From Alphaproteobacteria bacterium (GTDB taxonomy: Bacteria; Pseudomonadota; Alphaproteobacteria; Micropepsales; Micropepsaceae), in contig JAHFQC010000018.1 in the NCBI GenBank assembly GCA_023259375.1, positions 1 to 64,000 on the forward strand: a stretch of DNA of 64,000 bases, written 5' to 3'. Shown one piece after another: positions 3,085 to 42,907 of the stretch (positions are counted from its first letter, which is position 1; the number at the start of each line of letters is the position of its first letter). The notes under the pieces were generated by a model. The model was not told the DNA's origin. It saw nothing but the letters and a program-made list of their open reading frames with translations, and searched no databases. Made by a program: the position numbers and the translations under genes.

Positions 3085-3464
3085 CCTCCGTCGCCCTGAT
3101 CACGCTCGCCGGTATCGTGTTGTACTGGCTGTGGCCGCGGCTGACGGCTGCGTTCAAGCGATTCGATCAGGACAACCGCGACCGCATCATCCGCCAATGG
3201 GAGGACCGCCGCGATTCGGGCGCCCATGTCCGCCACACCTTGGAAGTGGCGGGTGAGCAGGTCGAGGCGATCGTCGAGATCAAGGACAAAGATCCTCGTA
3301 CCGGCACGCCGGTGACGCGCTTTTCGTTCGAAGGCGTCTGGTACCCCACACGCGACGAAGCCGAACAGGTGCGCGCCGAAAAGATCGGTGATATCGCGCG
3401 CGGCTTTTATCGCGACCTGCCCGCTGCGCTGGCTGCGCGTCGGCGGGACGGACGTCTGAATTAA
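3069..3464 (+). CDS. small membrane-anchored protein of unknown function
   Basis: 131 residues. One hydrophobic N-terminal segment (about residues 5-22, ending VLYWLWP) is followed by a charged soluble domain rich in Arg, Asp and Glu. I do not recognise a named family. It overlaps the 3' end of zapE by 16 bases in another frame, which suggests co-transcription. It ends about 14 bases before a REP-like repeat. Codon use looks like its neighbours, so it is probably a real gene. Confidence 0.7.
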   Translation: MFWNLTSVALITLAGIVLYWLWPRLTAAFKRFDQDNRDRIIRQWEDRRDSGAHVRHTLEVAGEQVEAIVEIKDKDPRTGTPVTRFSFEGVWYPTRDEAEQVRAEKIGDIARGFYRDLPAALAARRRDGRLN

Positions 3465-3477
3465 TCTAAGTTTGTCG

Positions 3478-3521
3478 CGCTTTCGGACGGAAAACCGGTT
3501 CCCACTTTTCCTGAAAGCGCT
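3478..3521. repeat. REP-like palindromic repeat, copy 3
   Basis: Nearly identical to 87-130, with the core changed from CGGTTTCC to CGGTTCCC. It fills the space between two convergent genes and abuts the stop codon of the ubiquinone hydroxylase at 3522. That is a typical position for REP elements, which can stabilise or end transcripts. Confidence 0.8.
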
Positions 3522-4730: not shown

Positions 4731-4946
4731 GATTCCGATTCTCACGCCGCCGCACGGTTCGTCAATGCCTATTTATTAGACACCATTTGGCCGCAGGGCA
4801 GAAATTAGGCACATACCGTCTAGAATCCAACGGCAACTTCCTGTCGTGTGACATTTTCTCAACCAAAAACAACCGGTTAGGTCTGCGCACCGAGTCGGCA
4901 CAGTTCTTGATGAAGAGGAAAGGACGAGGCTTAACAGCGGGACTGA

Positions 4947-5288
<342 letters not shown>

Positions 5289-5329
5289 GGCGGGCCGCGA
5301 TCTTGGGATCGATTAGGGGAACTACAGTC

Positions 5330-6661: not shown

Positions 6662-6682
6662 ACCTCTCCTCCAGAGAGAACT

Positions 6683-6711
6683 GGGGCGCTCCTTCGGGGG
6701 CGCCCTTTTTT
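6683..6711 (+). terminator. rho-independent terminator after amtB
   Basis: GGGGCGCTCC and GGGGGCGCCC form a GC-rich stem around a short TTC loop, followed by T6. The T run overlaps the stop codon of the convergent HD-domain gene. Confidence 0.9.
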
Positions 6712-7327
6712 ATGGTGCCTTCTTCATCCAGCCGCACTTGACCGCATCTTCGAACACGGCGTTGGCGGCGGCCCACAGCGTCGGCGAGCCTTTGTCGATC
6801 TTGTTGGTCAGGGCCCGCTCGCGTTCGATATCGACGTCATAGGCGATCCAGCTGCCGCCGCCGACGGCGTGGTTCTGCAGGATCGGCTGCAGCCGGTCGA
6901 GCGCCTTGGCGAACTTGGCGTCCGCCGTTTCGGCGGCTTCAAACTCTTCCCAGACCGCCCGCAGTTCTTGGTTCTGGTCCTCGGGCAACCGGCCGAACAC
7001 GACATCGGCGGCTTTCTGTTCGCGGTCGGCTTGGGTGGCGGCCGCGGCGGCGAAGATCGGCGTGTCGCCACACTCGTATTCGATGAGATCGTGCAGCACC
7101 AGCATCTGCACCACGCGGGCGATATCGATGGGGGCGACCGCGTATTCCTTCAGCACCAGCGCGAACAGCGTCAGATGCCAGGAATGCTCCGCCGAATTCT
7201 CGAACCGCGCCCCGCTGGTCACCTTGCAGGCGCGATAGACCTCTTTCAGCCGATCCGCCGCGAGTAGGAATTTCAGTTGCGCCGCCAGACGTTCGTCCAG
7301 CGCACTCAGCCAAGCCTCGGATTTCAT
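6710..7327 (-). CDS. HD-domain hydrolase (HDDC2/YfbR-like)
   Basis: 205-residue metal-dependent HD phosphohydrolase. The H...HD...D pattern is visible as ENSAEHSWHLTLFA (about residue 45) and VLHDLIEYECGD (about residue 75). This resembles HDDC2/YfbR 5'-nucleotidases acting on nucleoside monophosphates. The start at 7327 has GGAG seven bases upstream; the open frame continues upstream, but that part lacks family similarity and a ribosome site. It is convergent with amtB. Confidence 0.85.
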   Translation of the reverse strand: MKSEAWLSALDERLAAQLKFLLAADRLKEVYRACKVTSGARFENSAEHSWHLTLFALVLKEYAVAPIDIARVVQMLVLHDLIEYECGDTPIFAAAAATQADREQKAADVVFGRLPEDQNQELRAVWEEFEAAETADAKFAKALDRLQPILQNHAVGGGSWIAYDVDIERERALTNKIDKGSPTLWAAANAVFEDAVKCGWMKKAP

Positions 7328-7471
7328 GAACGCACTCCGTTGTTTGGCGATCCGTCCTAAGCCGTCCCGAGCCGGCGCGCCAGCCCCGGACAAACTTCGC
7401 GACATTTCCGCCGCAGTACCGCGAAAATGTTCTCTTATTGTTCTCACGATGTCATTGGTATGGAGGACGCC

Positions 7472-7804
7472 ATGGAAATCACCGCTGACGCCATGATCCA
7501 ATTGTCAGACGGCGAATTGTTGGAAACCTATCGCAAATCACTCCGGCTCTATGCCGAGAAGAAATTTGCGCGCGACACCGAGCGCGGCCGCATCGCTTGG
7601 CAGGGCGCCAGATTTTTCGTCACCAGCCGCGGCGGGGTGACGGAACGCCAAATGGCGCTCGAAGCCTCGGAAGACTTCGCCAAGAAAAACCAGGTCGTCC
7701 GCGAGATGACACTCGACCTCGACCTTCTGAAAGCAGATGTCGACGTGCTGGCGCTGGCGTTCCGCGTTCGCGGCACGGATCCGCCTGAAAAGTCGGAACG
7801 ATAA
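7472..7804 (+). CDS. conserved hypothetical protein, 110 residues
   Basis: A charged, mostly helical protein with a heptad-like C-terminal half (ASEDFAKKNQVVREMTLDLDLLKADVDVLALAFR). No signal peptide or membrane segment. The start at 7472 is supported by GGAGG nine bases upstream; in-frame ATGs at 7427 and 7460 lack this. I do not recognise the family. It converges with the DUF5694 gene with a one-base gap. Confidence 0.7.
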   Translation: MEITADAMIQLSDGELLETYRKSLRLYAEKKFARDTERGRIAWQGARFFVTSRGGVTERQMALEASEDFAKKNQVVREMTLDLDLLKADVDVLALAFRVRGTDPPEKSER

Positions 7805-7805
7805 A

Positions 7806-8591
7806 TCACTGCGGCAGGAAGTCGTCGGCCTCGACCAGTCGGTAGCCGGGCAACTCGGCGAAGCACTGGCGCAGCAGGAAGGCGTGACCGGCGCCGTACA
7901 CTACGACCACGCGGTCGCCCGGCTTGGCCTGCTGCACGAGATTGGCGCAGATGCGGAAATTGCGGTCGTACCACGCCGTCAGAAGAGCGACGCCGGGCTG
8001 CTCGTTGCCGCCGCCGACGCGCAGCATGGTGCGATAGAAGTCATGGTCGCGCGCGATTCGCTCGGGCTCGTTGAGGAAGTGCAGCGTGGCGCCGATCGTG
8101 TGGCTTGTCAGCGTGGCATTGATCGCATCGACCCGAGCCTGACCGTCCTTCCAGAGGCCGTCGAGAAACGCCTTTTGCCCATGCGCCTTGGCATAGGCGT
8201 CGACCGCTTCATAGGGAAAGTCTGTCAGCACATCGATGCCGGCGACATGATCGAGACCGGCCTTGGCCGCAAGACGAAAGCCGATCTGCACCGATTCATC
8301 GCGGCTCGGCGGCAATGTCCCGGCGCGGTATTGGCCGTAGCGCTGATCGGCTTTGTCGGCCGGCCATTCGACCGCCACCAGCGTGGGCTTGAAGCGGTTC
8401 AGCGCCTCGGCGACGGCGGCAATCTCGTCCTGCCGCTTGGGCGCCAGCACGTCGTCGGCGGCGACGTTGTGCATGTCGTGGCCGGGATTGCTCATATGGA
8501 ACACCCCGACCACCATCACCGTCACCGGCGCCTCGGCAGCAACACAGGGGCTCAGGGCGAAAAGCGCGGCAAGCGCGGCGGCAAGTTTCAT
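7806..8591 (-). CDS. secreted DUF5694 family protein
   Basis: 261 residues with an N-terminal signal peptide (cleavage after SPCVAA). The mature part begins VMVVGVFHMSNPG and contains the acidic AVEWPADK, then YGQY, and a C-terminal VVVVYGAGHAFLLRQ. These GxxH ... E ... GxGH marks match DUF5694 and resemble the TraB/Tiki and EreA/ChaN superfamily of putative metalloenzymes. The substrate is unknown and the protein is probably periplasmic. Two other members of this broad fold appear to be in the window (32662-33909 and 42996-43964). Confidence 0.8.
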   Translation of the reverse strand: MKLAAALAALFALSPCVAAEAPVTVMVVGVFHMSNPGHDMHNVAADDVLAPKRQDEIAAVAEALNRFKPTLVAVEWPADKADQRYGQYRAGTLPPSRDESVQIGFRLAAKAGLDHVAGIDVLTDFPYEAVDAYAKAHGQKAFLDGLWKDGQARVDAINATLTSHTIGATLHFLNEPERIARDHDFYRTMLRVGGGNEQPGVALLTAWYDRNFRICANLVQQAKPGDRVVVVYGAGHAFLLRQCFAELPGYRLVEADDFLPQ

Positions 8592-8693
8592 GGGGCACTC
8601 CAGAGTGCGTCGAGCCTAGCGCGGCGGTTGCCGTATGCAGAAATTCCGCCGGCAGAGAGCCAGCGTTCCGATTCGGAATGGCTGCAGACTAGT

Positions 8694-9332
8694 CTACGGC
8701 GTAGCGGGCGCGGCCGGGTCCGCCGCCGGTGCAACCGGCTCGGGCGCCGGAGTTGCGACCTCTTTGACAGTCACCTTCTTGATGACGATCGGCTTCATCG
8801 GATAGGCGGTCGGGAACGAGCCTTTCATGCCGCCGAGCGGCACCAGGGCGATGGCGTCGAGCACTTCCTGGCCGCTGATCACCTTGCCGAACACCGCAAA
8901 GCCGGTGGTGTTGGGGGCGTCCTCCGGCTTGGGATCGAGCGCCTTGGCGTTGGTATCGGCAAGGTTAAAGAAAAACTCGGCTTTGGCGGAGTTGGTCGGC
9001 TTGGTTTCGCGCGCCATCGCCACCGTGCCGCGCTTGTTCGACAGCCCGTTCGCGGTTTCGAGCGGAATCGGGTTGGCGGTGGGGCGCCATTTGAGGTCGG
9101 CGCCGAACGAGCCGGTCTGGATCACATAGCCGGGCACGATGCGGTAGATCACGGTATTGTTGTAAAGGCCCTGCTTGGCATAGCGGATGAAGTTGGCGAC
9201 GGTCTTGGGCGCCTTGTCCTTCTCCAGAGCCACCACGACGGTGCCCATGCTGGTTTCGAACTTGGCTTGGGGTTGCGCCGGAGCGGCGGCGGCAAACACG
9301 GCAGCGGCGAGAAGGGCGGTCACAAGGCGCAT
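8694..9332 (-). CDS. secreted peptidyl-prolyl cis-trans isomerase, cyclophilin type
   Basis: 212 residues. The signal peptide ends near AAAAPAQ. A compact bacterial cyclophilin domain follows: F-TSMGTVVVALE, APKTVANFIRYAKQGLYNNTVIYRIVPGYVIQTG, and AEFFFNLADTN. The tail is Ala/Pro rich (PAPEPVAPAADPAAP) and low in complexity. It probably catalyses proline isomerisation on periplasmic proteins. Cyclophilins of PpiA type are similar, but I give no symbol because paralogues are common. Confidence 0.92.
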   Translation of the reverse strand: MRLVTALLAAAVFAAAAPAQPQAKFETSMGTVVVALEKDKAPKTVANFIRYAKQGLYNNTVIYRIVPGYVIQTGSFGADLKWRPTANPIPLETANGLSNKRGTVAMARETKPTNSAKAEFFFNLADTNAKALDPKPEDAPNTTGFAVFGKVISGQEVLDAIALVPLGGMKGSFPTAYPMKPIVIKKVTVKEVATPAPEPVAPAADPAAPATP

Positions 9333-9517
9333 TTTGATTCCCCCATGGAAGGCAGGCGGTCTTCTAGCATGCCACGCGGCAAAGCGCGCGCGTAGGAATT
9401 CTGCCCGGCCGCGAATTTGGTCGCGGCGCGTGCTTGACGGCGGACCCCGGAAGGGCTTGATAGACCGCCCGTCGGCGCTCCGGAGCAGCGCCGGACGACT
9501 GCAAAAGGTTTAAATTC

Positions 9518-9751
9518 GTGAAGAAGCCAGACCAGTACGTCTTCAAATATCCTTCCGAGGACGAGGCATATGTCCGCCGGCTCGGCGCGGCGCTGCTGAT
9601 TCACTGGGCGGAGCTTCCGGAAGAGGCGCGCGTCGCCATTCTTGCCGAAGCGGCGGTGGTGTGGGACCGCGAGTTCCACATTCCGCAGATCTCCAAGAAG
9701 CTCGAAGCTTTCATCCGGCGCCGGCCGGTTCCGCCGCCAAAGGAAGATTAA
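9518..9751 (+). CDS. small conserved hypothetical protein, 77 residues
   Basis: A small soluble protein starting at GTG with AAAAGG about ten bases upstream. It is rich in charged residues and ends RRRPVPPPKED. No motif that I can name. A hairpin GGCGCT-N7-AGCGCC at 9474-9492 lies in its leader. The coding pattern is plausible but short, so confidence is moderate. Confidence 0.6.
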   Translation: MKKPDQYVFKYPSEDEAYVRRLGAALLIHWAELPEEARVAILAEAAVVWDREFHIPQISKKLEAFIRRRPVPPPKED

Positions 9752-9835
9752 CGGCCTGCAATTGATGGCGGGCGCGCCTTGTGCCCCGCAATTGCCATGG
9801 AATACTGGGAGCCTCGGCGTTCCAGGAGCAGATGC

Positions 9836-10489
9836 ATGAACAAAACGGTCGAACGGGTCCATCGCCTTTACACCCAGCACGAGCAGTTGGCCGACAACAT
9901 CGTGCACGTCGCCGGCATCCTGTTCGCGATCAACGCCTCGTTGTGGCTGCTCTGGCATGTCACCGGCATGAGTGTGCTGGTCTCGGTCTCGATCTACTGC
10001 CTCGGCCTCTTGGCGATGATCGGCTGCTCTGCCGCCTACAACATGACGCCGCATTCGCGCCCGTCGAAGACGATCCTGAGGCGTCTCGATCATTCCGCCA
10101 TCTTCATCATGATCGCGGCGACCTATACGCCGTTCGCCGTCAACCGGCTGGGCGCGACGTCGGGGACGATCATCCTCACCGTGGTCTGGCTGTGCGCGAC
10201 CTTCGGCGTGGTGATGAAGCTGGTTTGGCCGCGCCGCTTCGAATGGCTGTCGCTCGGGCTTTATCTCGCCATGGGCTGGGTGATCGTCACGGTGATCCAG
10301 CCGCTGTCGCTGTCGCTTGCCCACGTCAATTTCTGGCTGTTGATGGCCGGCGGCATCGTCTATTCGGCCGGCGTGATCTTCTACGTCTGGGAACGCATCC
10401 CCTATCATCGCGCCATCTGGCACGCCTTCGTGCTGACCGCGACCATCCTGCAGTTCGGCTCGATCGTCGGCGAATTCACTTTACGCTGA
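9836..10489 (+). CDS. hemolysin III / PAQR-family membrane protein
   Basis: 217 residues with seven predicted membrane helices. HlyIII/PAQR marks are visible: EQLADNIVHVAG near the N terminus, SAAYNMTPH, LDHSAIFIMIAATYTPF with the first metal-binding His, and RAIWHAFV with the C-terminal His. The bacterial role of the family is unclear; eukaryotic relatives are adiponectin receptors with zinc-dependent hydrolase activity. The start at 9836 has AGGAGCAG upstream. Confidence 0.92.
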   Translation: MNKTVERVHRLYTQHEQLADNIVHVAGILFAINASLWLLWHVTGMSVLVSVSIYCLGLLAMIGCSAAYNMTPHSRPSKTILRRLDHSAIFIMIAATYTPFAVNRLGATSGTIILTVVWLCATFGVVMKLVWPRRFEWLSLGLYLAMGWVIVTVIQPLSLSLAHVNFWLLMAGGIVYSAGVIFYVWERIPYHRAIWHAFVLTATILQFGSIVGEFTLR

Positions 10490-10494
10490 CGCCT

Positions 10495-10526
10495 CGCACG
10501 CAGCCGCCACGCCAACCCTGCGTGCG
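10495..10526. terminator. hairpin between convergent genes (possible bidirectional terminator)
   Basis: Perfect 9-base arms CGCACGCAG and CTGCGTGCG separated by 14 bases, placed between the stops of the hemolysin III gene and gloB. There is no T run, so intrinsic termination is uncertain. Confidence 0.4.
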
Positions 10527-10538
10527 TGGCGCATGACT

Positions 10539-11294
10539 CTAGAAATTATCCTTCCGCCTGCGGATTTCCGCGAACACGGCGACGTCGTCGGCCTTTGCCA
10601 TGCCGAGATTGGCGCGAATTTCGGCTGAGTTCGTCCGCAGGAATGGATTGGTGGCCTTTTCAAGCGCAATGGTCGAAGGCACCGAGAATTTGCCGTCGTT
10701 CCGCAGCACTTCGATCTCCTTGAAGCGCTGCTGCAAGGCGGCGTTGCCCGGTTCCACGCTCAACGCAAAGCGCGCGTTGGCGAGGGTGTATTCGTGGCCG
10801 CAATAGACCTTGGTGTCGTCGGGCAAGGCGGCGATTTTGGCAAGGCTCGCGTGCATCATTTCCGCCGAACCTTCGAACAGACGACCGCAGCCCATCACGA
10901 ACATGGTGTCGCCGGTGAATACGGCATCGCCAAACACGTAAGCGACGGCGCCGCGGGTGTGGGCCGGGACCTCCAGCACCTGGACCTTGAAATCGCCGAA
11001 CTGCCAGCCGTTCTCATCCACGCCGGTATCGATCGCCGGAATGCGGGTGCGATCCTTCTCCGGACCGACCACCTCGGCGTCGTAGGCGGCCTTCAGCTCC
11101 CGGTTGCCGCCGGAATGGTCCCAGTGGTGGTGGGTGTTGAGAATGTGGGTCAGGCGGGTCCCGCTGGCCTTCAGCACGGCCTCTACCGGCCCGACCTCCG
11201 CCGGATCGATGACGGCGCACAAGTCCCCGGCGCGGACGAGGTAGGCGTAATTGTCCTGAAGGCAGGGGATGACGGTGATTTCGAGTGCGGTCAT
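10539..11294 (-). CDS. gloB: hydroxyacylglutathione hydrolase (glyoxalase II)
   Basis: 251-residue metallo-beta-lactamase-fold enzyme that hydrolyses S-lactoylglutathione to lactate and glutathione, the second step of methylglyoxal detoxification. The binuclear metal motif is NTHHHWDHSGGN (His55, His57, Asp59, His60). Further ligands lie in VPAHTRGAVAY (His), FTGDTMFVMGCGRLFEG (Asp) and VYCGHEYT (His). The C-terminal NPFLR is typical of substrate binding. The start at 11294 is preceded by GAGGAG. It is divergent from the methyltransferase gene. Confidence 0.95.
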   Translation of the reverse strand: MTALEITVIPCLQDNYAYLVRAGDLCAVIDPAEVGPVEAVLKASGTRLTHILNTHHHWDHSGGNRELKAAYDAEVVGPEKDRTRIPAIDTGVDENGWQFGDFKVQVLEVPAHTRGAVAYVFGDAVFTGDTMFVMGCGRLFEGSAEMMHASLAKIAALPDDTKVYCGHEYTLANARFALSVEPGNAALQQRFKEIEVLRNDGKFSVPSTIALEKATNPFLRTNSAEIRANLGMAKADDVAVFAEIRRRKDNF

Positions 11295-11374
11295 GGCGAA
11301 CTCCTCTGGAACGATTCTTATCAGTCCTGCGCCCCGCATTGAACCCTGGGCCGGATCGGCTTAAGCCTCCTGTC

Positions 11375-12094
11375 ATGCAGCTGGACGCAGGCGAGCTCTC
11401 CGATTTCTACGAGTCGGCGCTGGGCCGGGCCGCCCGGCGGCAGATCTGCCACCGCCTCAAGGAATTCTGGCCGCATTGCCGGGGCTTGCGCGTGCTCGGC
11501 TACGGCTTTGCCCCACCCTACCTCAAATCCTGGCTGCCCGAAGCGGAGCGGGTGGTTGCGATGATGCCAGCGCGCACCGGCGTCACCGCATGGCCCGCCA
11601 ACCGGCAGCTGGCAGTGCTGGGCGACGAGGACGTTCTGCCGTTCGCCGATGCCGTGTTCGATCGCATCCTGGTGGTGCACGGATTGGAAGGTGCCGACGC
11701 GGCGCGCGTTCTGTTACGGCAGCTTTGGCGCGTGCTGGCGCCGGAAGGACGCGTCCTTCTGGTGACGCCCAATCGCGCCAGCCTGTGGGCGCAGCTCGAA
11801 GCATCGCCTTTTGCTTGCGGCAGACCGTTCCACAAGAGCGAGCTTGCCGGCCTTCTCACCGATACGCTGTTCGAACCGGTGAAATGGGACCGCGCGCTTT
11901 ATCTGCCGCCGTTCGCGGGCCGTCGCATGGCGCGCCTTGGCGATGGCTTCGAACGGCTTGGCCGCCGTCTTTGTCCCGGCGTCGCTGGTGTGCATTTGGT
12001 GGAAGCGTCGAAGTCGCTCTATGGACGCGCGCTGCGCAAGGCACCCGCGAAAGCGAAAGCGGCATTGCGCCCGGCCACGACATTCCCCGGTTGA
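11375..12094 (+). CDS. class I SAM-dependent methyltransferase-like protein
   Basis: 239 residues. The fold is recognised by GLRVLGYGFAPPYL (an altered SAM-binding motif I), VLGDEDVLPFADAVFDRILVVHGLE (motifs II/III) and LRQLWRVLAPEGRVLLVTPNR (motif post-III). The usual acidic-glycine loop (DxGxGxG) is degenerate, so SAM binding may be altered. It is often found beside gloB in alphaproteobacteria, and the two are divergent here with about 80 bases between starts. Substrate unknown. Confidence 0.82.
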   Translation: MQLDAGELSDFYESALGRAARRQICHRLKEFWPHCRGLRVLGYGFAPPYLKSWLPEAERVVAMMPARTGVTAWPANRQLAVLGDEDVLPFADAVFDRILVVHGLEGADAARVLLRQLWRVLAPEGRVLLVTPNRASLWAQLEASPFACGRPFHKSELAGLLTDTLFEPVKWDRALYLPPFAGRRMARLGDGFERLGRRLCPGVAGVHLVEASKSLYGRALRKAPAKAKAALRPATTFPG

Positions 12095-12300
12095 CACACA
12101 ATCACTCCTTTGTGAATGCGGTATTGAGGGATCGCTGCAGCCTCTGCAAGACCGCCATGCGCGGCGCGGGCATCAAACCGGCGACGTCAAAAAAATCCTT
12201 ATAAACCTGGCTTTTCTCGCAGCCGCGCAATTTTCGAACAGCAGACCTCGCAAAACTGTGAATCAGAAAGGGCTACAATAGTTGCCAGTCAACGACCACA

Positions 12301-12314
12301 TCCGGATTACCGGA
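12301..12314. repeat. short palindrome in the leader of the small secreted protein gene
   Basis: TCCGG-ATTA-CCGGA, perfect 5-base arms, seven bases before the AAGGAGG ribosome-binding site. Could be a small leader hairpin or an operator. Confidence 0.4.
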
Positions 12315-12334
12315 CCCTGTTAAGGAGGAAACTC

Positions 12335-12592
12335 ATGAAACTCGCATTTGCACTGGTTGCGCTTTCGACGCTCGCTCTTGCCCCTGCCGCCAATGCTGCT
12401 GACGCCCGTCTCACCGACTGCGTCCAGATGGCCAAGCAAGTATCGGCCGCTCTCGAAGCCGCTCAGCCCAGCACCTCGACGGATCAGGCGCGCCAGCAGG
12501 CGTCGGCCGGCCGTTCCTATTGCGGCTCGCAGATGTATACCGCGGGCGTCGCCCACTACAGCAAAGCGCTGCAGCTCCTCGGCAAGAACTAA
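12335..12592 (+). CDS. small secreted protein of unknown function
   Basis: 85 residues. A clear signal peptide (cleavage after APAANA) leaves a mature chain of about 64 residues that is Ala, Gln and Ser rich, with two cysteines (in TDCVQM and SYCGSQ) that could form a disulfide. The ribosome site AAGGAGG is near-perfect at optimal spacing, so translation should be strong. No family recognised. It is followed by a 275-base structured region ending in an intrinsic terminator. Confidence 0.75.
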   Translation: MKLAFALVALSTLALAPAANAADARLTDCVQMAKQVSAALEAAQPSTSTDQARQQASAGRSYCGSQMYTAGVAHYSKALQLLGKN

Positions 12593-12613
12593 GCTGCCGC
12601 CCGCTAAGGTGCA

Positions 12614-12636
12614 ATTTGCATAGCCCGTATGCAAAT
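12614..12636. repeat. perfect inverted repeat after the small secreted protein gene
   Basis: ATTTGCAT-N7-ATGCAAAT, 8-base perfect AT-rich arms, 21 bases after the stop codon. There is no T run, so it may be a protein-binding site or an RNA stem rather than a terminator. Confidence 0.55.
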
Positions 12637-12831
12637 AGCTCCCTTGGGGAATGATAAACGTAAGTCTTTGACTTGAATATGAAATTGGCGGAGTTTCTGC
12701 GCCAGTTTCCGCCGCCGGGCAGCCATGCTGCTGGCGGTTGTTCCCGAGGGGAGAAAACGGGCGTACCCCTTGTGACGTGATCGCGTGACGGCAACCCCCT
12801 GCCGTCATCCGACAAAGCCACCGACGGGTGA

Positions 12832-12867
12832 GGAGCGGCTGCCGCAACAGCCGCTCCTTCCGTTTTT
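12832..12867 (+). terminator. rho-independent terminator (plus strand)
   Basis: Perfect 10-base stem GGAGCGGCTG / CAGCCGCTCC with loop CCGCAA, followed by TTCCGTTTTT. It ends plus-strand transcription before the convergent metW. Confidence 0.88.
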
Positions 12868-12881
12868 CAGCGCCTTCCGTT

Positions 12882-13490
12882 TCAGTGATTGCCGCGCAGC
12901 AGAAAGATCGCCGCTTCGGCCAAGAGATTGGGGCCCCAGGACCGCGGGCTCATCGGCTTGGTGCGTCCGGTCGGGGTCAATGCAAACGCCTGTTCGATTT
13001 CAGCACCGCAGGTTTCGGCGAGATCGACGAAATCGGCGATGGTGCACAGATGAATGTTGGGCGTGTCGTACCACTCGTTGTCGAGCGTCTTGTTGCGCGG
13101 CATGCGTCCTTGAGCGAGCAGGCCCAGCCGGATGTGCCAGTGACCGAAATTCGGCAGCGAGACGATGGTCCGCCGGCCGATCCGCAGCATCTCGCTGAGC
13201 ACGGCCCTGGGATTGCGCGTTGCCTGGATGGTCAGGCTCAGGATCACCACGTCGAACACTTGCGACGGGTATTCGCCGAGATCGGTGTCGGCATCGCCCT
13301 GGATCACCGGCAGGCCGCGCGCCACGCTGGCGTTGACCTTCTGTTGCGACAGTTCCAGGCCGCGGCCGTCGACGTTTTTGGTTTCGCTCAGATATTCGAG
13401 CAAGGCGCCGTCACCGCAACCGACATCGAGCACGCGGGCGTTCTGCGGAATCAGCCCGGCGATGGCGGCAAGATCGGAGCGCAGGCTCAT
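12882..13490 (-). CDS. metW: methionine biosynthesis protein MetW
   Basis: 202-residue methyltransferase-fold protein that is the obligate partner gene of metX in many proteobacteria. SAM-fold motif [15 protein letters not shown] lies at residues 20-34, with [25 protein letters not shown] downstream and the MetW-typical [13 protein letters not shown] near residue 140. MetW is thought to support MetX activity or methionine synthesis. Its ATG overlaps the metX stop by four bases (ATGA), so the two are translationally coupled. Confidence 0.95.
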
Positions 13491-14677
13491 GGTGCTACGC
13501 CTTCGCTGCCGGCCACCGCATTGATGAAGCCGCGCACCGTCGCGAACATCTGCGGCTCGTTGAGCAGGAAAGCATCGTGGCCGCGGTCGCTTTCGATCTC
13601 GACGAAACTGACATTGGCCGCCGCCGCGTTGAGCGCGTGGGCGATGCGCTTGTTCTCGTGCGTCGGATAAAGCCAGTCGCTGGTGAAGGAAATCAGGCAG
13701 AACCGGGTCTTGCAGCCGCGGAACGCTTCCGCCAGCACGCCGCCGTAATCGGCCGCGATGTCAAAATAGTCGGTGGCGCGAGTGATGTAGAGATAGGAGT
13801 TGGCGTCGAAGCGGTCGACGAACGCCGAACCTTGATGGTGCAGATAGGATTCGACCTGGAAATCGGGCGCAAACGCGAAGCTGATGCCGCCGGCCTTCTG
13901 CAGATTGCGGCCGAATTTGCGCTGCAAAGCCGGTTCCGACAGATAGGTGATGTGGGCCGCCATGCGGGCCACCGCGAGACCCTTCGAGGGCTGGGTGTCG
14001 TGCTCGTAGTACGCGCCGCCATGCCACTCGGGATCCGCCATGATCGCCTGGCGTCCGACTTCATGGAACGCAATGTTCTGGGCCGAATGGCGCGCCGCGC
14101 AGGCGATCGGCATCGCCGCCACCACCCGTTCGGGGTGACTGACGGTCCACTGCAACGCCTGCATGCCGCCCATCGAACCGCCCATCACGCACATCAGCCG
14201 GTCGACGCCGAGATGATCGATCATAAAAGTCTGCGCCCGCACCATGTCGCGGATGGTGACGAGCGGAAAATCGAGGCCGTAAGGCTTGCCGGTTTCGGGA
14301 TTGACTTCGGCCGGTCCGCTCGAACCCATGCAGCCGCCGAGAACGTTGGAGGCGATAACAAAAAAGCGGTCGGTATCGATCGGCTTGCCGGGGCCCACCA
14401 TGGTCTCCCACCACCCGGGCTTGCCGGTGACGGGATGCGCCGATGCGACGAATTGGTCGCCGGTCAAGGCATGGCAGATCAGGATCGCGTTGGAGCGCGC
14501 CGCATTCAATTTCCCGTAGGTCTTGAAGGCCAGCCGCCAGCTGGTGAGAGTCCGGCCGCAATCGAGCGTCAGGGCCTTATCCGGCCCGAACTCGACCACT
14601 TCGCCGCGATCGGCGTCCGGGGCGGTCAAAGGACGCAGGAAGATGGGATCGGACAACGAAACCTCTCCACCGGACAC
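13487..14677 (-). CDS. metX: homoserine O-acyltransferase MetX
   Basis: Alpha/beta-hydrolase-fold enzyme that acylates homoserine for methionine synthesis. About 396 residues from a GTG at 14677. A TTG at 14656 has the better ribosome site (GGAGAGG five bases upstream) and would give 389 residues, so the true start may be the TTG. Nucleophile Ser168 lies in [20 protein letters not shown] forms the oxyanion-loop region; the C-terminal SDWLYP (Asp) and DRGHDAFL (His) complete the triad. Acetyl- versus succinyl-CoA preference cannot be told from fold alone. It leads the metX-metW pair and is divergent from hisC. Confidence 0.95.
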
Positions 14678-36138: not shown

Positions 36139-38535
36139 CTATTCGTCGCGATGATCGGGCAACAGGACTTCGCGCACGCCCTTGTGATTGGGCTTGGAGA
36201 TGACCTGCTCTTCTTCCATCCGCTCGATCAGGCGGGCGGCGCGGTTGTAGCCGATCTGCAGCCGGCGCTGGATGTAGCTGGTCGTCGCCTTGCGTTCGCG
36301 CGCCACGATGTCGAGCGCCTTGTCGTAGAGATCGTCGCCCGAACTGCCGTTGCCTTCGCCGAATGCGCCGATCGAACCCTCGTCGCCTTCCGGCTCTTCG
36401 GTGACCTCTTCGAGGTATTCCGGCGTGCCTTGGGTCTTGAGGAACTTGACGATCTCTTCGACTTCGCCGTCGCTGACGAACGGGCCGTGGACGCGGCGGA
36501 TACGCCCGCCCGCCATCATGTAGAGCATGTCGCCCTGGCCCAAGAGCTGTTCGGCGCCTTGCTCGCCCAGGATGGTGCGGCTGTCGATCTTGGAGGTAAC
36601 CTGGAAGGAAATGCGGGTCGGGAAGTTGGCCTTGATTGTGCCGGTGATGACGTCGACCGACGGGCGTTGAGTCGCCGCGATCAAGTGAATGCCGGCGGCA
36701 CGGGCCATCTGGGCGAGGCGCTGCACCGCGCCTTCGATTTCCTTGCCCGACACCATCATCAGGTCGGCCATTTCGTCGACCACCACCACGATGTACGGCA
36801 TCGGCTCGAGTTCGAGCACTTCGTCTTCATAGACCGGCTTGCCGGTTTCCTTGTCGAAGCCGGTCTGCACCGTGCGCTTGAGGACTTCGTTCTTGGATTT
36901 GGCTTTCTTGACGCGCTCGTTGAACGCTTCGACGCCGCGCACGCCGAGCTTCGACATCTTGCGATAGCGCTCTTCCATTTCGCGCACCGCCCATTTGAGA
37001 GCGACGACGGCCTTGCGCGGATCGGTGACGACGGCGGTGAGCAGATGCGGAATGCCGTCATAGGCCGACAGTTCCAGCATCTTGGGGTCGATCATGATCA
37101 GTTTGCACTGGTCCGGCGGCAGCCGGTAGAGCAGCGACAGGATCATGGTGTTGATGGCCACCGATTTGCCCGAACCGGTAGTACCGGCGATCATCAAGTG
37201 AGGCATCTTGGCGAGGTCGGCCATCACCGGCTCGCCGCCGATGGTTTTGCCGAGCGCCAGGATCAGCGGCGCGCGCGCCTTTTCGAATTCGGCCGAGCCG
37301 ACCAACTCGCGCAGATAGACCATCTCGCGGGTCTGGTTCGGCAATTCGATGCCCATCACGTTACGGCCGGGGATCACGGCGATACGGGCGGCGACCGCCG
37401 ACATCGAGCGCGCCACGTCGTCGGCCAGCGCAATCACGCGCGACGACTTCACGCCCGCGGCCGGTTCGAATTCATACAGCGTCACGACCGGGCCCGGACG
37501 CACCGCCATGATGCGTCCTTTGACGCCGAAATCGGACAGCACCGATTCCAGCATGCGGGCGTTTTCTTCCAGGCTTTCGTCGGAGAAAGCGGCTTCGTCG
37601 CGGTTGTGCTGCGGCTCGGCCAGCAGCGTCACGGGCGGCAGCTCGTATTCGCCCGAGTTGAACAGCGCCGGCTGTTTCGGGTTCTTGGATACCGTGGTCT
37701 TTTTGGGTTCGTCGCGCCGGATGCGGGTGACGTTCGAGGGCGTTGCCGGCTCGGGCTCGCCGTCCTCCTCTTCGACTTCTTCCTCGTCCTCGTCGACTTC
37801 TTCCTCACCGTCCTCGGCGATGATCCGCGGCGCCCGCGGCTCGACCCGGCGTTTCGGCGCCTTGCCTTCGGGGGCCTTGAGCAGACCGGCGACCCAGGTA
37901 ACGAGCGCCAGGGCATGGAAGGCGGCGCGGCCGATGGCGCGCGGCTTGATATCGGCGGCGACGATCGCGAGCGCCAGCCCGGCAAACAGAAGAATCAGCG
38001 GCAGCGCCCAGCCGACCCAGGTCTGACCCCAGCTCACGCCGAGATTGACCGCCATCTGAACCGCTGCGATGCCGATATTGCCGCCGGCAGCGAAACTCTC
38101 GGGCCGCGGCAGGATGCCGAGACCGGAGGCGAGCAGCATGGTGGCCGCCGGCCAGGCAATGACCCGCAGCATGGCGCGGCGCAGTGGCCAGCCCATCATG
38201 GCGCGGGTGCCCCAGACGATCGGCGGCACCAGGAAGGCAAGCGAAGCGAAGCCGAAATACTGCAGCAGGATATTGGCCGCCGTGGCGCCGAAGGGACCCA
38301 AGAGATTGGTCGCCTCGCGGCCGGTGGCGGTATCGGGACTGGGATCGTTGGGATTGTAGCTGATCAGGGCGACCAGAACCGCGGCCGCGCCGGCGAGCAG
38401 CACCAGTCCGGCGCCGCGAAACAGCGCCAGCCGCAACAGTTCCGCCGTCTTGCGACGGGCTTCCGCCAAAGTCTCGGACAACCAAGCCCCTTTGCGGCGT
38501 GGCTGGTAGACCCCCGAAGTTCGAGCGCCGCTCAT
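36139..38535 (-). CDS. ftsK: DNA translocase FtsK
   Basis: 798 residues. Four N-terminal membrane helices (about residues 40-205), an acidic linker (EEEVDEDEEEVEEEDGEPE region near 245-260), then the RecA-like motor with Walker A AGTTGSGKSVAINTM near residue 460, Walker B VVVVDEMADLMM near 585, and a C-terminal winged-helix gamma domain (YIQRRLQIGYNRAARLIERMEEE). FtsK moves chromosomal ends during division and activates XerCD at dif. Its start overlaps the aminotransferase stop by four bases. Confidence 0.97.
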   Translation of the reverse strand: MSGARTSGVYQPRRKGAWLSETLAEARRKTAELLRLALFRGAGLVLLAGAAAVLVALISYNPNDPSPDTATGREATNLLGPFGATAANILLQYFGFASLAFLVPPIVWGTRAMMGWPLRRAMLRVIAWPAATMLLASGLGILPRPESFAAGGNIGIAAVQMAVNLGVSWGQTWVGWALPLILLFAGLALAIVAADIKPRAIGRAAFHALALVTWVAGLLKAPEGKAPKRRVEPRAPRIIAEDGEEEVDEDEEEVEEEDGEPEPATPSNVTRIRRDEPKKTTVSKNPKQPALFNSGEYELPPVTLLAEPQHNRDEAAFSDESLEENARMLESVLSDFGVKGRIMAVRPGPVVTLYEFEPAAGVKSSRVIALADDVARSMSAVAARIAVIPGRNVMGIELPNQTREMVYLRELVGSAEFEKARAPLILALGKTIGGEPVMADLAKMPHLMIAGTTGSGKSVAINTMILSLLYRLPPDQCKLIMIDPKMLELSAYDGIPHLLTAVVTDPRKAVVALKWAVREMEERYRKMSKLGVRGVEAFNERVKKAKSKNEVLKRTVQTGFDKETGKPVYEDEVLELEPMPYIVVVVDEMADLMMVSGKEIEGAVQRLAQMARAAGIHLIAATQRPSVDVITGTIKANFPTRISFQVTSKIDSRTILGEQGAEQLLGQGDMLYMMAGGRIRRVHGPFVSDGEVEEIVKFLKTQGTPEYLEEVTEEPEGDEGSIGAFGEGNGSSGDDLYDKALDIVARERKATTSYIQRRLQIGYNRAARLIERMEEEQVISKPNHKGVREVLLPDHRDE

Positions 38536-39725
38536 GGTCCCGCTTCACTCAAAAGAGAACCGATCTTAACCAGTGCCGCACGAATGGTTGACAAATCGTT
38601 TACCAGGGCAATCCGGATAAACGAAAAACCAGGGTTTGTGCGGAGTTTTCCCGCTACGATTTCCCGCCCCATATAGGCCCCGGGCAGCACTTTGACCCCG
38701 CCCTCGCGCCACAGCTTGAGGGCGGTGGCTTCGCCGTCACCGACCTCGAGCCAGAGGAAAAAGCCGCCTTTGGGCAGGTCGAACCCCGGCAAATGGCCCA
38801 GCACCTCTTCCGCCAGTTCAAACCGCTCGGCGTAGGTCGCCCGGTTGCGGCGGACATGCTCTTCGTCATTCCAGCAGGCGGCGGAAGCGGCCTGGATCGG
38901 CAGCGGCACCTGGGGACCGGCGTAGTTCCGCAGGGCGCGGAAACGGGTCATCAGCTTGGGGTCGCCGGTGACGATGCCGGACCGCAGCCCCGGCAGGCCG
39001 GAACGCTTGGACAGGGAATGGAAGCTGAGCAGGCGGTCATACGGCGGCCGCCGCACCGACAGGGCGCCCAGCGGCGGGGTATCGAGATAGATATCGGCGT
39101 AGCATTCGTCCGCGAACACTGTGAACTCGTAGGCATCCGCCAAAGCGAACAGTGTTTGCCAATAGGCTTCGCCCGCCGCCGCACCTTCTGGGTTGGATGG
39201 CGAGCAGAAGTAAGCGGCCACGGTGCGGGTCAGCACCGACAGAGGCAGCGAGGCGTAATCGGGCAGGAAGCCGGTCTCCGCCCGCGCCGGCACATAAACC
39301 GGTTCGGCCCCGGCCGCATAGATCGCCGCCGCGTAGCATTGGTAGAACGGGTTCGGCAGCAGGATCACCGGCCGGCCGCCGCCCTTGCCGTCGGGCGTGA
39401 CGATCTTGGGGGCCAGGAACAGACCTTCGCGGGTGCCGTTGAGCGGCAAACCCTGAGTCTCGGGGTCAATCTCGGCGCCGAACCGGCGCTTCAGCCAGCC
39501 GGCCGCCGCTGCCCGCCATTCCGGGGTGCCGTCGATCGGCGGGTACTGGCCGAATTCATGGGCGTGCGAAGCGATCGCCTCGCGCACAAAAGCCGGGACT
39601 TCGCCGCGCGGATCGCCGACCGCCAGACTGACCGGCGTATCGCCCGGCGGCACGCCTTCGAACAGGAGCGCGAGCTTGGCGAAAGATCCTTGCGGGAGGT
39701 CGGCGAGACGGCCTGGGAAAATCAC
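38532..39725 (-). CDS. class I/II PLP-dependent aminotransferase (DapC-like candidate)
   Basis: 397 residues from a GTG at 39725. PLP enzyme with SPSNPEGAAAGEAYW, FADECYADIYL (Asp/Tyr at the cofactor) and the PLP lysine in SFHSLSKRSGLPGLRSG; C-terminal GFSFIRIAL with the carboxylate Arg. Resembles the aspartate/LL-DAP-like branch used as succinyldiaminopimelate transaminase in alphaproteobacteria, but the substrate is not certain. Upstream of ftsK in the same direction and coupled to it. Confidence 0.85.
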   Translation of the reverse strand: MIFPGRLADLPQGSFAKLALLFEGVPPGDTPVSLAVGDPRGEVPAFVREAIASHAHEFGQYPPIDGTPEWRAAAAGWLKRRFGAEIDPETQGLPLNGTREGLFLAPKIVTPDGKGGGRPVILLPNPFYQCYAAAIYAAGAEPVYVPARAETGFLPDYASLPLSVLTRTVAAYFCSPSNPEGAAAGEAYWQTLFALADAYEFTVFADECYADIYLDTPPLGALSVRRPPYDRLLSFHSLSKRSGLPGLRSGIVTGDPKLMTRFRALRNYAGPQVPLPIQAASAACWNDEEHVRRNRATYAERFELAEEVLGHLPGFDLPKGGFFLWLEVGDGEATALKLWREGGVKVLPGAYMGREIVAGKLRTNPGFSFIRIALVNDLSTIRAALVKIGSLLSEAGP

Positions 39726-39830
39726 GGTTCTGTCTTTCTGGCGGGACGCAGCCGCCCATTTATAGGCAAGTCTACGGACTCTGTTCACAAATCTCTAACC
39801 ACGCCCGCCATAATACTTACCGTACAGGCG

Positions 39831-39846
39831 TACACATACATGTGTA
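39831..39846. promoter_or_regulatory. palindrome ahead of the glycan cassette
   Basis: TACACAT-AC-ATGTGTA, perfect 7-base arms, 15 bases before the ATG at 39862 and next to another GTACA direct half-repeat. Suits a repressor operator controlling the three-gene cassette. Confidence 0.55.
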
Positions 39847-39861
39847 TCTGCAGAGGGCAAT

Positions 39862-40992
39862 ATGAACCTGCCGCTTTCCCGCGCCGTGACCGGTCCCGCC
39901 GAGCTGCTCTTCCGGGCCGTCATCAAGAAGGCGTTGGCTTGTGCAGATCCGCCGAAACCCATTCTCTCCAACAAACGGCGTTATGAGCGCGTACTGCCGC
40001 CGCTGCTCAGCGAAATGGGCGGCGAAATCCGGTTTCATATCGCACGTGTCGAGCCGTGGCTGCGCGCCGGTTGGAAGGTGATGTCGCGCCACGCTGCGTT
40101 TTATCCCGAAGGCACTGCCATCTACGATCCCGAATTCTTTGCAGCTGCCGAAACGATTCTCAAGAATTTCGGCGTCGTCGGTTCGCGCGGGGGCTTTGTG
40201 ACCCCGCCGGTCGACCGCTATCCGCCCCAGGTGGAGGCTCAGTTCGACGGCGCCAGCGGGAAGATCGTGTTGTCCGTGGCTGATTCCAGCCAGCTCATGG
40301 CGCAGGCCTTGGCCGAGATCGAATTGCGCAAGCTCTTCATCGCGTGGTTCGACTATGACGACCGCCGCATCAACGACATCGACCATTTTGTGCTGTCGTT
40401 CGCTTCGGCGGCCTGGGGTTTTTGGGAATACCGCTCCGCCTCGGTGTTGTGCCCCAGCTTCAAGCCGCCGGCGTTTGAAAATCCGCCGGAACCGATTCCC
40501 GATCATGTCGGCGTGCAAATCCGCAACCTGACGCATGTGAAGCCGCAGCCGCGCAACAGCGATCCGGACTGGATGATGGCAACCGCCACGGCGATCGCCA
40601 AACATCTCGGTCTCGAACTGATCGTCTATGGCCATCCCCATGGCTGCATCATTCCCGAAGGCTGCAAAACGAGCTGGGACCCATCGCGTCCCACAGGCCA
40701 GAAGGAACGGGAGCTCGGATATCTCAAATCCTGCCGGCTGATGCTGTCGCCTGATTCCGGTTGGGCCGATCTGATGGCCTGGCTGCAGGTGCCGACCCTG
40801 CTCGAACAGTCCTACCTCCCCGGCGATTTCGAATGCCTGCGCGACACCTTTCAGCCGCGCCTTGGTCTCGTCGACCGCAACCGGCCGATCGCGGAGCAGG
40901 TCGACGCCTTGCTCGCCGCGCCGGGGCCGCAGTTATTCCCGGCCGAAGCCGCATTTCCCGTCGATAAGCAATCCTATCCGTGGGAGCCCTGA
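39862..40992 (+). CDS. glycosyltransferase-like protein
   Basis: 376 residues. No signal peptide. The C-terminal half looks like a nucleotide-sugar binding domain of GT9/heptosyltransferase-type enzymes: DHVGVQIRNLTH, LGLELIVYGHPHGC, then RLMLSPDSGWADLMAWLQVPTLL, comparable to the donor-site SPDSG loop. The N-terminal half has no recognised family. First gene of a close three-gene unit: a two-base gap to the next gene. It would act on a cell-surface or secreted glycan, but the acceptor is unknown. Confidence 0.7.
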   Translation: MNLPLSRAVTGPAELLFRAVIKKALACADPPKPILSNKRRYERVLPPLLSEMGGEIRFHIARVEPWLRAGWKVMSRHAAFYPEGTAIYDPEFFAAAETILKNFGVVGSRGGFVTPPVDRYPPQVEAQFDGASGKIVLSVADSSQLMAQALAEIELRKLFIAWFDYDDRRINDIDHFVLSFASAAWGFWEYRSASVLCPSFKPPAFENPPEPIPDHVGVQIRNLTHVKPQPRNSDPDWMMATATAIAKHLGLELIVYGHPHGCIIPEGCKTSWDPSRPTGQKERELGYLKSCRLMLSPDSGWADLMAWLQVPTLLEQSYLPGDFECLRDTFQPRLGLVDRNRPIAEQVDALLAAPGPQLFPAEAAFPVDKQSYPWEP

Positions 40993-40994
40993 TC

Positions 40995-42542
40995 ATGAAC
41001 GCCGTACCGCGTCTCGATGAAACGCCCCGTCCCGCCGTTCCCACTTATATCGTGCAGGCCGGAGGGCAAGGCACGCGGATGGAGCACTACACCTGGAACA
41101 AACCCAAGTGTCTGGTGCCGATCGACGGCAAACCGCTGCTCTATCATCTTTTCAATGCGGCGCCCGATGCGCACTTCATCGTCATCGGCGATTACCTGTT
41201 CGACGTGCTCAAGGCCTATATCGAGACGTTTCCGCCGCCGGCGAGGACGACGCTGGTGCGCTCCACCGGCAAGGGCACCTGTGCGGGAATATCCGAGGCG
41301 CTCAGTCTGGTCGAGGATGACACCGCGCCGGTCGGACTTGTCTGGTGTGACCTGCTGTTCGGGCGCCTGCCCGAACATCAAGCCGTCAGCCGTCCGGTGA
41401 TCGGCATTTCGACGCATTTCCCTTGCCGCTGGTCGCTTCACCCCCGCCGCGGCCTGATCGAGGATCTGTCGTTCGACCGCGGCGTGGCGGGATATTTCGC
41501 GTTTCCGAATGCGAGCTTCCTGCATTCCGTTCCGGCGGAAGGCGAGTTCGTGCGCTGGCTCAGCACGGTGCTGGGCGATTTCGAGACGGTTACGCTCGAT
41601 CACTGCAACGAGGTCGGCAACAGTGCGGTGGCGATCCGGCATTGGGAGCAGCGCGGCTTTGCCCGCTTCTTCAACGATGTGAAGATGCTGCCGGACCGGG
41701 TGGAAAAACGCGCCCGGATAGCGAGCCTGTCGTACAAGCTCGACGAAGAGGCCGCCTGGTATGAAGAGGTCGCGCGCCGCGGTTATAAGAACGTGCCGGA
41801 GCTCATCGGCCGGTCGCCTTTGACGCTGTCGCGCATCGACGGGGCCCATCCCGACGAGATCAATCTCAAACCGAAGGAAAAGCACGAACTGCTCGGCCGG
41901 GTATTCCAGTCGCTCAAGGATCTGCACGATCTCGGCTCGGCGCCGGCCGTCCCCCAGGATTGCGAAGATACCTATGTCGACAAGACCGTGATGCGGGTCG
42001 CCAAGATCCTCTCGCTGGTGCCGGGGCACGATCAGCCGTTCGTCACCATAAACGGCAAACGCTGCCGCAATCCCTTTGCCGACGGCAACGGACTGAAGCA
42101 ATTGATCGGCGACGTCGCTTGCGAGAAATTCACGTTCTTCCACGGCGATCCCACCTTCGCCAACATGCTGGTCGGCAAGAGCGGCGAGATCTTCCTGATC
42201 GACCCGCGCGTCGTTTTCGGCCGCAGCCGCTTTTTCGGCGATCCCGATTACGACTGGGCCAAGCTCTACTATTCCGCCATCGGCGACTACGACGCTTTCA
42301 ACAAGCGCCGCTTCCGGCTGGTGGTTTGGAACTCGACCATTTCGCTCGACATCGACAGCGCCGGATTCTCCTTCACCAAGTCCCTGTTCCGCGACGTGCT
42401 TGGCGAAAAGCGGTTCCATAAGGTCGAACTGCTCCACGCGCTGATCTGGCTGTCGCTCGCGGGCTATGTCGACGACGACGTCGATTCGATGATCGCGGCG
42501 TTCTACAACGGCCTCTACTGGCTGGAGGAATGGGCGCAATGA
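40995..42542 (+). CDS. fused nucleotidyltransferase and aminoglycoside-phosphotransferase-like kinase
   Basis: 515 residues in two domains. Residues 18-250 are a sugar/choline-phosphate-type nucleotidyltransferase: VQAGGQGTRM (21-29) and NKPKCLVPIDGKPLLYHL (35-52). Residues about 260-515 are an APH/choline-kinase-like fold: catalytic HGDPTFANML near residue 383 and metal-binding FLIDPRVVFG near 400. Such fusions would phosphorylate a small molecule and activate it as an NDP derivative in one protein, like LicA plus LicC. The substrate (choline, sugar or polyol) is not known. The start ATG follows the previous stop by two bases; the stop overlaps the HAD gene (ATGA). Confidence 0.82.
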   Translation: MNAVPRLDETPRPAVPTYIVQAGGQGTRMEHYTWNKPKCLVPIDGKPLLYHLFNAAPDAHFIVIGDYLFDVLKAYIETFPPPARTTLVRSTGKGTCAGISEALSLVEDDTAPVGLVWCDLLFGRLPEHQAVSRPVIGISTHFPCRWSLHPRRGLIEDLSFDRGVAGYFAFPNASFLHSVPAEGEFVRWLSTVLGDFETVTLDHCNEVGNSAVAIRHWEQRGFARFFNDVKMLPDRVEKRARIASLSYKLDEEAAWYEEVARRGYKNVPELIGRSPLTLSRIDGAHPDEINLKPKEKHELLGRVFQSLKDLHDLGSAPAVPQDCEDTYVDKTVMRVAKILSLVPGHDQPFVTINGKRCRNPFADGNGLKQLIGDVACEKFTFFHGDPTFANMLVGKSGEIFLIDPRVVFGRSRFFGDPDYDWAKLYYSAIGDYDAFNKRRFRLVVWNSTISLDIDSAGFSFTKSLFRDVLGEKRFHKVELLHALIWLSLAGYVDDDVDSMIAAFYNGLYWLEEWAQ

Positions 42543-42907
42543 TCCGGGTTTCGGCGCTGCCCAAGACCTGGATCTTCGATCTCGACGGCTGCCTGGTCGT
42601 CCATTGCGGTCATCTCGGCGACGGCGACCGCCTGTTGCCGGGGGTGCGCGAGTGGATGGCGCAGATCCCCGCCAGCGACCGCATCGTGCTCTTTTCGGCG
42701 CGCGAAGAATGCTATCGCGAATCCTCGCTCGCATTCCTCAGACGCGAAGGCATTCGCATCGATCACGCCGTATTCGGTCTGCCGGTGGGCGAGCGCATCT
42801 TGTTCAACGACCGCAAACCCAAAGGCCTCGACACCGCGTTGGCGATCAATCTGCCGCGGGACGCCGGCCCCTCCGCCGTCGCCGTGGAATGCGATCCGGC
42901 GCTTTGA
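42539..42907 (+). CDS. small HAD-family phosphatase-like protein
   Basis: 122 residues. HAD motif I IFDLDGCLV (Asp14, Asp16), motif II LFSAREE with Ser, and motif IV-type LFNDRKPKG. No cap domain of note. HAD phosphatases of this size often dephosphorylate an intermediate of activated-sugar or polyol pathways. It closes the cassette and is coupled to the NTase-kinase gene. Confidence 0.78.
   Translation: MIRVSALPKTWIFDLDGCLVVHCGHLGDGDRLLPGVREWMAQIPASDRIVLFSAREECYRESSLAFLRREGIRIDHAVFGLPVGERILFNDRKPKGLDTALAINLPRDAGPSAVAVECDPAL

What the first reader, a model, noticed from the sequence alone, without database searches (positions are those of the whole stretch)
39831..42907. Glycosyltransferase, NTase-kinase fusion and HAD phosphatase cassette behind a palindrome
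Three tightly packed genes (two-base gap, then ATGA overlap) sit alone among housekeeping genes. The middle protein fuses a nucleotidyltransferase to an APH/choline-kinase-like domain. With a HAD phosphatase and a glycosyltransferase-like protein this could make and transfer an activated small molecule (sugar, choline or polyol phosphate) to a surface glycan. A perfect 7-base palindrome lies just before the first start. I recognise no described system with exactly this set.
Basis: partly seen in the sequence, partly recalled or inferred. Interest (0 to 1): 0.62.

Follow-up and report, generated by a model that had tools for sequence, protein, structure and literature searches.

The report
Sugar-activation cassette shared with phages
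Three genes inserted between housekeeping genes of a soil bacterium most likely turn a sugar phosphate, probably D-arabinose 5-phosphate, into an activated sugar; two of the three match, in combination, genes found in phages, including phages that decorate their own DNA with arabinose.

Summary
The cassette is real: three packed + strand genes (39862-42907) in a Rhizomicrobium-like alphaproteobacterium. Gene 2 is a fused sugar-1-phosphate nucleotidyltransferase and APH-fold kinase with intact catalytic motifs (AlphaFold pLDDT 89.6). Gene 3 is a small PNKP-like HAD phosphatase. Gene 1 is an orphan; its glycosyltransferase label has no support. The cassette sits in 2 of 69 genus members, at a site where 8 other members have the flanking genes directly adjacent, so it looks acquired. 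The fusion has full-length relatives in T-even phages (including RB69, whose DNA carries arabinose), cyanophages, a Planktothrix plasmid and scattered proteobacteria. A HAD gene accompanies it in every complete locus examined. In phages a KdsD-like arabinose-5-phosphate isomerase accompanies both; the window lacks this gene, but its genome carries a true KdsD. Best model: ribulose-5-P to D-arabinose-5-P (KdsD), then 1,5-bisphosphate (kinase), 1-phosphate (HAD), then NDP-D-arabinose (nucleotidyltransferase), transferred perhaps by gene 1. It is a convergent analogue of GmhA/HldE/GmhB. Sugar activation is well supported; D-arabinose is inferred; the acceptor is unknown. The palindrome is not conserved. 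New variant of a known but biochemically uncharacterised kind.

The parts
39862..40992 (+). Gene 1: orphan 376-aa protein, candidate transferase of the activated sugar (inferred from position only)
   Evidence: ORF; 76% identical in R. electricum at the same place; no family, PDB, phage or plasmid match; found in 1 of 385 class genomes, its own; AlphaFold failed, pLDDT 32
40995..42542 (+). Gene 2: fused sugar-1-phosphate nucleotidyltransferase (about residues 15-222) and APH-fold kinase (about 230-515)
   Evidence: PF12804 6.9e-10, PF01636 1.7e-4; AlphaFold pLDDT 89.6, pTM 0.88; nucleotidyltransferase part matches HddC, MurU and LicC, Z about 20; conserved GG.G.R...KPK and W(S/C)D; kinase K238, E252, HGD383-385, N390, D403 invariant
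42530..42907 (+). Gene 3: small PNKP-like HAD phosphatase (alternative start 42539, giving the ATGA overlap)
   Evidence: Profile A3 to Pnkp1 1e-5 and T4 Pnkp 0.0019; DxD (D17, D19) and ND (N93, D94) motifs invariant; 48-53% identical to the HAD beside the fusion in Planktothrix and S-SRM01
39831..39846 (.). Inverted repeat TACACAT-AC-ATGTGTA, 15 bases before the gene 1 start; probably not a conserved element
   Evidence: Absent upstream of gene 1 in R. electricum and in six empty sites; 43 comparable repeats in the window
38532..39788 (-). Left flank: class I/II aminotransferase, directly next to the TraB gene in relatives without the cassette
   Evidence: PF00155 8.6e-39; empty sites in L059-L066
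42975..43964 (+). Right flank: TraB/PrgY/GumN-family gene
   Evidence: PF01963 1.7e-23; empty sites in L059-L066

Best explanation
A laterally acquired sugar-activation operon. The kinase half of gene 2 phosphorylates the anomeric oxygen of an aldose phosphate, most likely D-arabinose 5-phosphate supplied by the housekeeping isomerase KdsD. The HAD phosphatase (gene 3) removes the terminal phosphate, leaving the sugar 1-phosphate. The nucleotidyltransferase half of gene 2 then couples this to an NTP, giving an NDP-sugar (NDP-D-arabinose). Gene 1 is likely, but not shown, to be the transferase that uses it. Shown: gene content, domains, fold, catalytic motifs, linkage of fusion, HAD and SIS in phages, empty sites, KdsD in the genome. 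Inferred: reaction order, sugar, nucleotide, role of gene 1, acceptor. My probabilities: sugar-phosphate to NDP-sugar 0.8; D-arabinose 0.5; gene 1 a transferase 0.45.
For: tblastn matches of the fusion over at least 80% of its length in 318 phage records (T-even types, S-SRM01) and one plasmid. Phage RB69, in whose DNA arabinose was found, carries in a row an arabinose-5-P isomerase, the split fusion and a HAD-type gene; Acj61 has the same isomerase and fusion side by side. All 17 viral loci with a (near-)full fusion carry both a SIS gene and a HAD gene close by. The SIS tested is KpsF/GutQ/KdsD-like (1e-24 to 1e-32) and far from GmhA (1e-5 or absent). The own genome has a true KdsD at 283.8 bits against a cut-off of 203.7, as do G041 (taken to be R. 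electricum), G110, G114 and G238. All 7 complete bacterial loci pair the fusion with the same HAD type. AlphaFold gives two confident domains; BFVD matches include RB69ORF052c and RB69ORF053c. In RB69 the fusion was shown to be a single 561-residue protein and proposed for UDP-arabinose synthesis (PMC6024577).
Against: No isomerase lies in the window cassette. One carrier, the reduced genome G254, has no detectable KdsD and instead has ManA-like and Rpe-like genes in the operon, so the sugar may differ between lineages. Identity to the T-even fusion is only about 25%, and the T-even HAD gene is not detectably related to gene 3 by BLAST. The nucleotidyltransferase fold does not discriminate the sugar or the NTP. 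Gene 1 has no evidence of function.
Confidence: 0.55

Rival explanations
1. Same chemistry, another sugar: the module activates a hexose or heptose phosphate (mannose-6-P, altrose-6-P, a heptose-7-P), as in GDP-heptose synthesis by GmhA, HddA, GmhB and HddC.
For: The closest solved relative of the nucleotidyltransferase by sequence is HddC (5xhw 4.7e-13), also Foldseek rank 1; G254 pairs the module with a ManA-like isomerase and lacks KdsD.
Against: In phages the partner isomerase is KdsD-like, not GmhA-like, and RB69 DNA contains arabinose.
Confidence: 0.25
2. LicC/LicA-like activation of choline, another amino alcohol or a polyol phosphate for decoration of a surface glycan.
For: LicC is among the structural matches (1jyk Z 20.0); the APH fold includes choline kinases (general knowledge).
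Against: PF01633 choline kinase not reported at E up to 1; HAD in every complete locus and a KdsD-like SIS in phages have no role in such a route.
Confidence: 0.08
3. Anomeric kinase plus uridylyltransferase salvage of a free sugar, as in AmgK/MurU cell-wall recycling.
For: MurU is a close structural match of the nucleotidyltransferase (4y7v Z 19.8) and AmgK has an APH-type fold (general knowledge).
Against: A free sugar needs no phosphatase, yet HAD accompanies the fusion in every complete locus; the SIS isomerase points to a phosphorylated sugar.
Confidence: 0.08
4. A remnant or recent acquisition without a function of its own in this host.
For: 2 of 69 genus genomes; the fusion diverges faster (67%) than gene 1 (76%), HAD (90%) and the flanking aminotransferase (93%).
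Against: All three frames are intact in two species, with catalytic motifs kept.
Confidence: 0.04

Closest known systems
Arabinose module of T-even phage RB69 (ORF055c SIS, ORF53_52c fusion, ORF051c HAD-type)
   Same: Full-length homologous nucleotidyltransferase-kinase fusion and an adjacent small HAD-type phosphatase gene (PMC6024577, PMC8056088)
   Different: The window has no SIS gene in the cassette, its HAD is of another subfamily, gene 1 is not found in phages, identity is about 25%, and it is chromosomal with no thymidylate-synthase homologue in the cassette
Cyanophage S-SRM01 glycan island (SIS, 'NDP-sugar synthase', '3-prime phosphatase')
   Same: Fusion 35% and HAD 53% identical, adjacent and in the same order
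   Different: The SIS gene is present and lies among GDP-fucose and glycosyltransferase genes; no gene 1 homologue
Planktothrix agardhii NIES-204 plasmid pair BBD57030/BBD57029
   Same: Fusion 45% and HAD 49% identical, adjacent, no SIS gene nearby
   Different: Sits in what looks like a secondary-metabolite cluster; no gene 1 homologue
ADP-heptose pathway GmhA / HldE / GmhB
   Same: Same predicted logic: SIS isomerase, kinase fused to nucleotidyltransferase, and a HAD phosphatase acting between the two
   Different: HldE kinase is PfkB-type and its transferase is of another fold (general knowledge); here APH-type and MobA/HddC-type
Leishmania arabino/fuco-kinase-pyrophosphorylase
   Same: One bifunctional protein makes GDP-D-arabinopyranose via D-arabinose 1-phosphate (PMC3347535, abstract)
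   Different: Starts from free D-arabinose, with no phosphatase step

Membership tests
Sugar-1-phosphate nucleotidyltransferases (PF12804/PF00483) | Family score over cut-off and G-x-G-T-R ... K-P-K signature | tested here: met
   39.8 bits against 27; signature conserved in A1 and A4; fold matches with Z about 20
APH-type kinases (PF01636) | Family score over the gathering cut-off | tested here: inconclusive
   21.9 bits against 23.2 for the window protein; 7 of 12 relatives match, best 1.4e-8
APH-type kinases (PF01636) | Catalytic HGDxxxxN and the metal-binding Asp | tested here: met
   HGD 383-385, N390 and D403 invariant in 12 sequences
HAD phosphatases, PNKP-like | DxD motif and a family or profile match | tested here: met
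   D17 and D19 invariant; Pnkp1 1e-5 by profile; single-sequence Pfam matches weak
RB69-type arabinose module | Homologous nucleotidyltransferase-kinase fusion | tested here: met
   Full-length tblastn to T-even phages; Foldseek to RB69ORF052c and 053c
RB69-type arabinose module | Adjacent KdsD-like SIS isomerase | tested here: not met
   None in the cassette; a separate KdsD is in the genome
RB69-type arabinose module | Makes an arabinosyl donor | not testable with these tools
   Needs biochemistry
ADP-heptose pathway (GmhA/HldE/GmhB) | PfkB-type kinase in the fusion | tested here: not met
   No PfkB match; the kinase is APH-type
LicCA choline activation | Choline kinase family PF01633 | tested here: inconclusive
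   Not reported at E up to 1, but related folds overlap
Glycosyltransferase (gene 1) | Any GT family match or GT fold | tested here: inconclusive
   No match in Pfam, NCBIfam, PHROGs or PDB; AlphaFold pLDDT 32; hhalign to neighbouring orphan proteins 0.2%

The most novel reading that the evidence does not exclude
A nucleotide-sugar route not among those I know, going through D-arabinose 1,5-bisphosphate to NDP-D-arabinose, with a fused kinase-nucleotidyltransferase shared by bacteria and phages, and gene 1 founding a new family of D-arabinosyltransferases in Rhizomicrobium.
Probability: 0.3. Interest if true: 0.7.

Novelty: new variant of a known kind. Interest (0 to 1): 0.5.

Why it matters
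A 2026 paper states that the full arabinosylation pathway of T-even phages has not been characterised and that the arabinose precursor is unclear (PMC13390438). A small, non-phage, two-enzyme version whose partners are only KdsD and one HAD makes the predicted route easy to test in vitro. It would also add an NDP-sugar route to the three prokaryotic D-arabinose routes listed in PMC11301363. Two papers cited in PMC13390438 that might already hold the answer (Lee 2025, Mahler 2025) could not be read here: the first is not held, the second was not found in the library searches.

Tried and rejected
Palindrome as a regulatory element: not conserved. Gene 1 as a glycosyltransferase: no evidence by HMM, PDB, phage, plasmid, viral-contig or genome searches; AlphaFold on 2 sequences failed; hhalign against neighbouring orphan proteins of other carriers gave 0.2% probability. 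The tree of 16 fusions did not resolve deep branches; it shows only that SIS-linked members lie on several branches. Literature searches for a described kinase-nucleotidyltransferase-HAD module found nothing beyond the RB69-related papers.

Full report
What is there. The window is from a Rhizomicrobium-like alphaproteobacterium: the flanking genes are 81-95% identical to R. electricum (L013). Genes 39862-40992, 40995-42542 and 42530-42907 lie on the + strand with a 2-base gap and an overlap. Gene 2 has a MobA-like nucleotidyltransferase domain (PF12804, 6.9e-10) and an APH-type kinase domain (PF01636, 1.7e-4, slightly under its cut-off, but 7 of 12 relatives match, best 1.4e-8). Gene 3 is a HAD protein (profile to Pnkp1 1e-5). 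Gene 1 matches nothing.

Acquisition. The fusion occurs in 2 of 69 genomes of the genus and 2 of 96 of the order. In eight genus members whose region was fetched (L059-L066) the aminotransferase and the TraB gene are directly adjacent with no cassette, while R. electricum has the cassette at the same place. In two further members (L067, L068) only the TraB gene was found in the stretch. GC content is close to the flanks, so composition does not betray the origin. Between the two carriers the fusion is the least conserved gene (67%), then gene 1 (76%) and HAD (90%).

Structure. AlphaFold with 12 sequences gives pLDDT 89.6 and pTM 0.88 for the fusion. The first domain matches HddC, MurU, LicC and other sugar-1-phosphate nucleotidyltransferases at Z about 20; these are tied, so the fold does not name the sugar. 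Against viral predictions the whole protein matches Tenacibaculum phage PTm1 'guanylyltransferase' (TM 0.78), and its halves match RB69ORF052c and RB69ORF053c. Kinase residues K238, E252, HGD 383-385, N390 and D403 and the nucleotidyltransferase signature are conserved.

Relatives and linkage. tblastn finds the fusion over at least 80% of its length in 318 phage records and one plasmid. In S-SRM01 the order is SIS, fusion, HAD. RB69 and Acj61 have a KpsF/GutQ-type isomerase next to the fusion and, in RB69, a HAD-type gene (PMC8056088). All 17 IMG/VR loci holding a full or nearly full fusion have both SIS and HAD genes nearby; many are near-identical, and they amount to about four lineages, lying on several branches of a weakly resolved tree. 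The SIS proteins tested score best with KpsF/GutQ/KdsD models (1e-24 to 1e-32), with GmhA at 1e-5 or absent. The seven complete bacterial loci (window, R. electricum, Planktothrix plasmid, G110, G114, G254, G575) have fusion and HAD but no SIS next to them. Five carriers tested (own, G041, G110, G114, G238) have a genomic KdsD over its cut-off; G254 does not.

Mechanism. The set isomerase, kinase, phosphatase, nucleotidyltransferase is the logic of ADP-heptose synthesis, where a kinase phosphorylates C1 of a phosphorylated sugar, a HAD enzyme removes the distal phosphate and a fused nucleotidyltransferase completes activation (general knowledge of GmhA/HldE/GmhB). With a KdsD-type isomerase the substrate would be D-arabinose 5-phosphate and the product NDP-D-arabinose. 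This agrees with arabinose in RB69 DNA and with the proposal by Thomas et al. that ORF53_52c serves UDP-arabinose synthesis (PMC6024577). A later paper corrects the RB69-type linkage to 5-hydroxycytosine and says the pathway is not fully characterised (PMC13390438). For the window the isomerase would be the housekeeping KdsD. This last step, the sugar, the nucleotide and the reaction order are inferences.

Doubts. G254 joins the module to ManA-like and Rpe-like genes and lacks KdsD; it has a second Rpe elsewhere, so the operon copy may be dedicated. This fits a pentose phosphate but also other ketose phosphates. Sugar specificity may thus vary. In G110 an orphan protein lies just upstream of the fusion, as gene 1 does in the window, but no homology is detectable.

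Palindrome. Perfect 7-base arms with a spacer of up to 4 occur 43 times in the window; this one is not upstream of gene 1 in R. electricum.

Verdict. I call it a new bacterial variant of the phage arabinose-type sugar-activation module.

Noticed in passing
L050-L052, L083-L089: A second subfamily, several members in surface-glycan gene clusters: a HAD gene, a kinase protein whose N-terminal nucleotidyltransferase-like part lacks the GxGTR signature in the examples read, and a separate nucleotidyltransferase of about 240 aa, as if the activity had moved to a new gene.
   Followed up: partly
L015 (Planktothrix agardhii NIES-204 plasmid), 633-13628: The fusion and HAD pair lies in what looks like a secondary-metabolite cluster with amidinotransferase, sterol-desaturase-like, sulfotransferase and taurine-dioxygenase-like genes; product not identified.
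   Followed up: no
L048, 5977-9453: A 0.9 Mb alphaproteobacterial genome without a detectable KdsD carries fusion, HAD, ManA-like and Rpe-like genes as a tight operon, and has a second Rpe gene elsewhere.
   Followed up: partly
L046, 7845-10685: An orphan 309-aa protein with a RSGLCDLL motif immediately precedes the fusion and HAD, in the position gene 1 has in the window; weak similarity only to an orphan next to the module in L047.
   Followed up: partly
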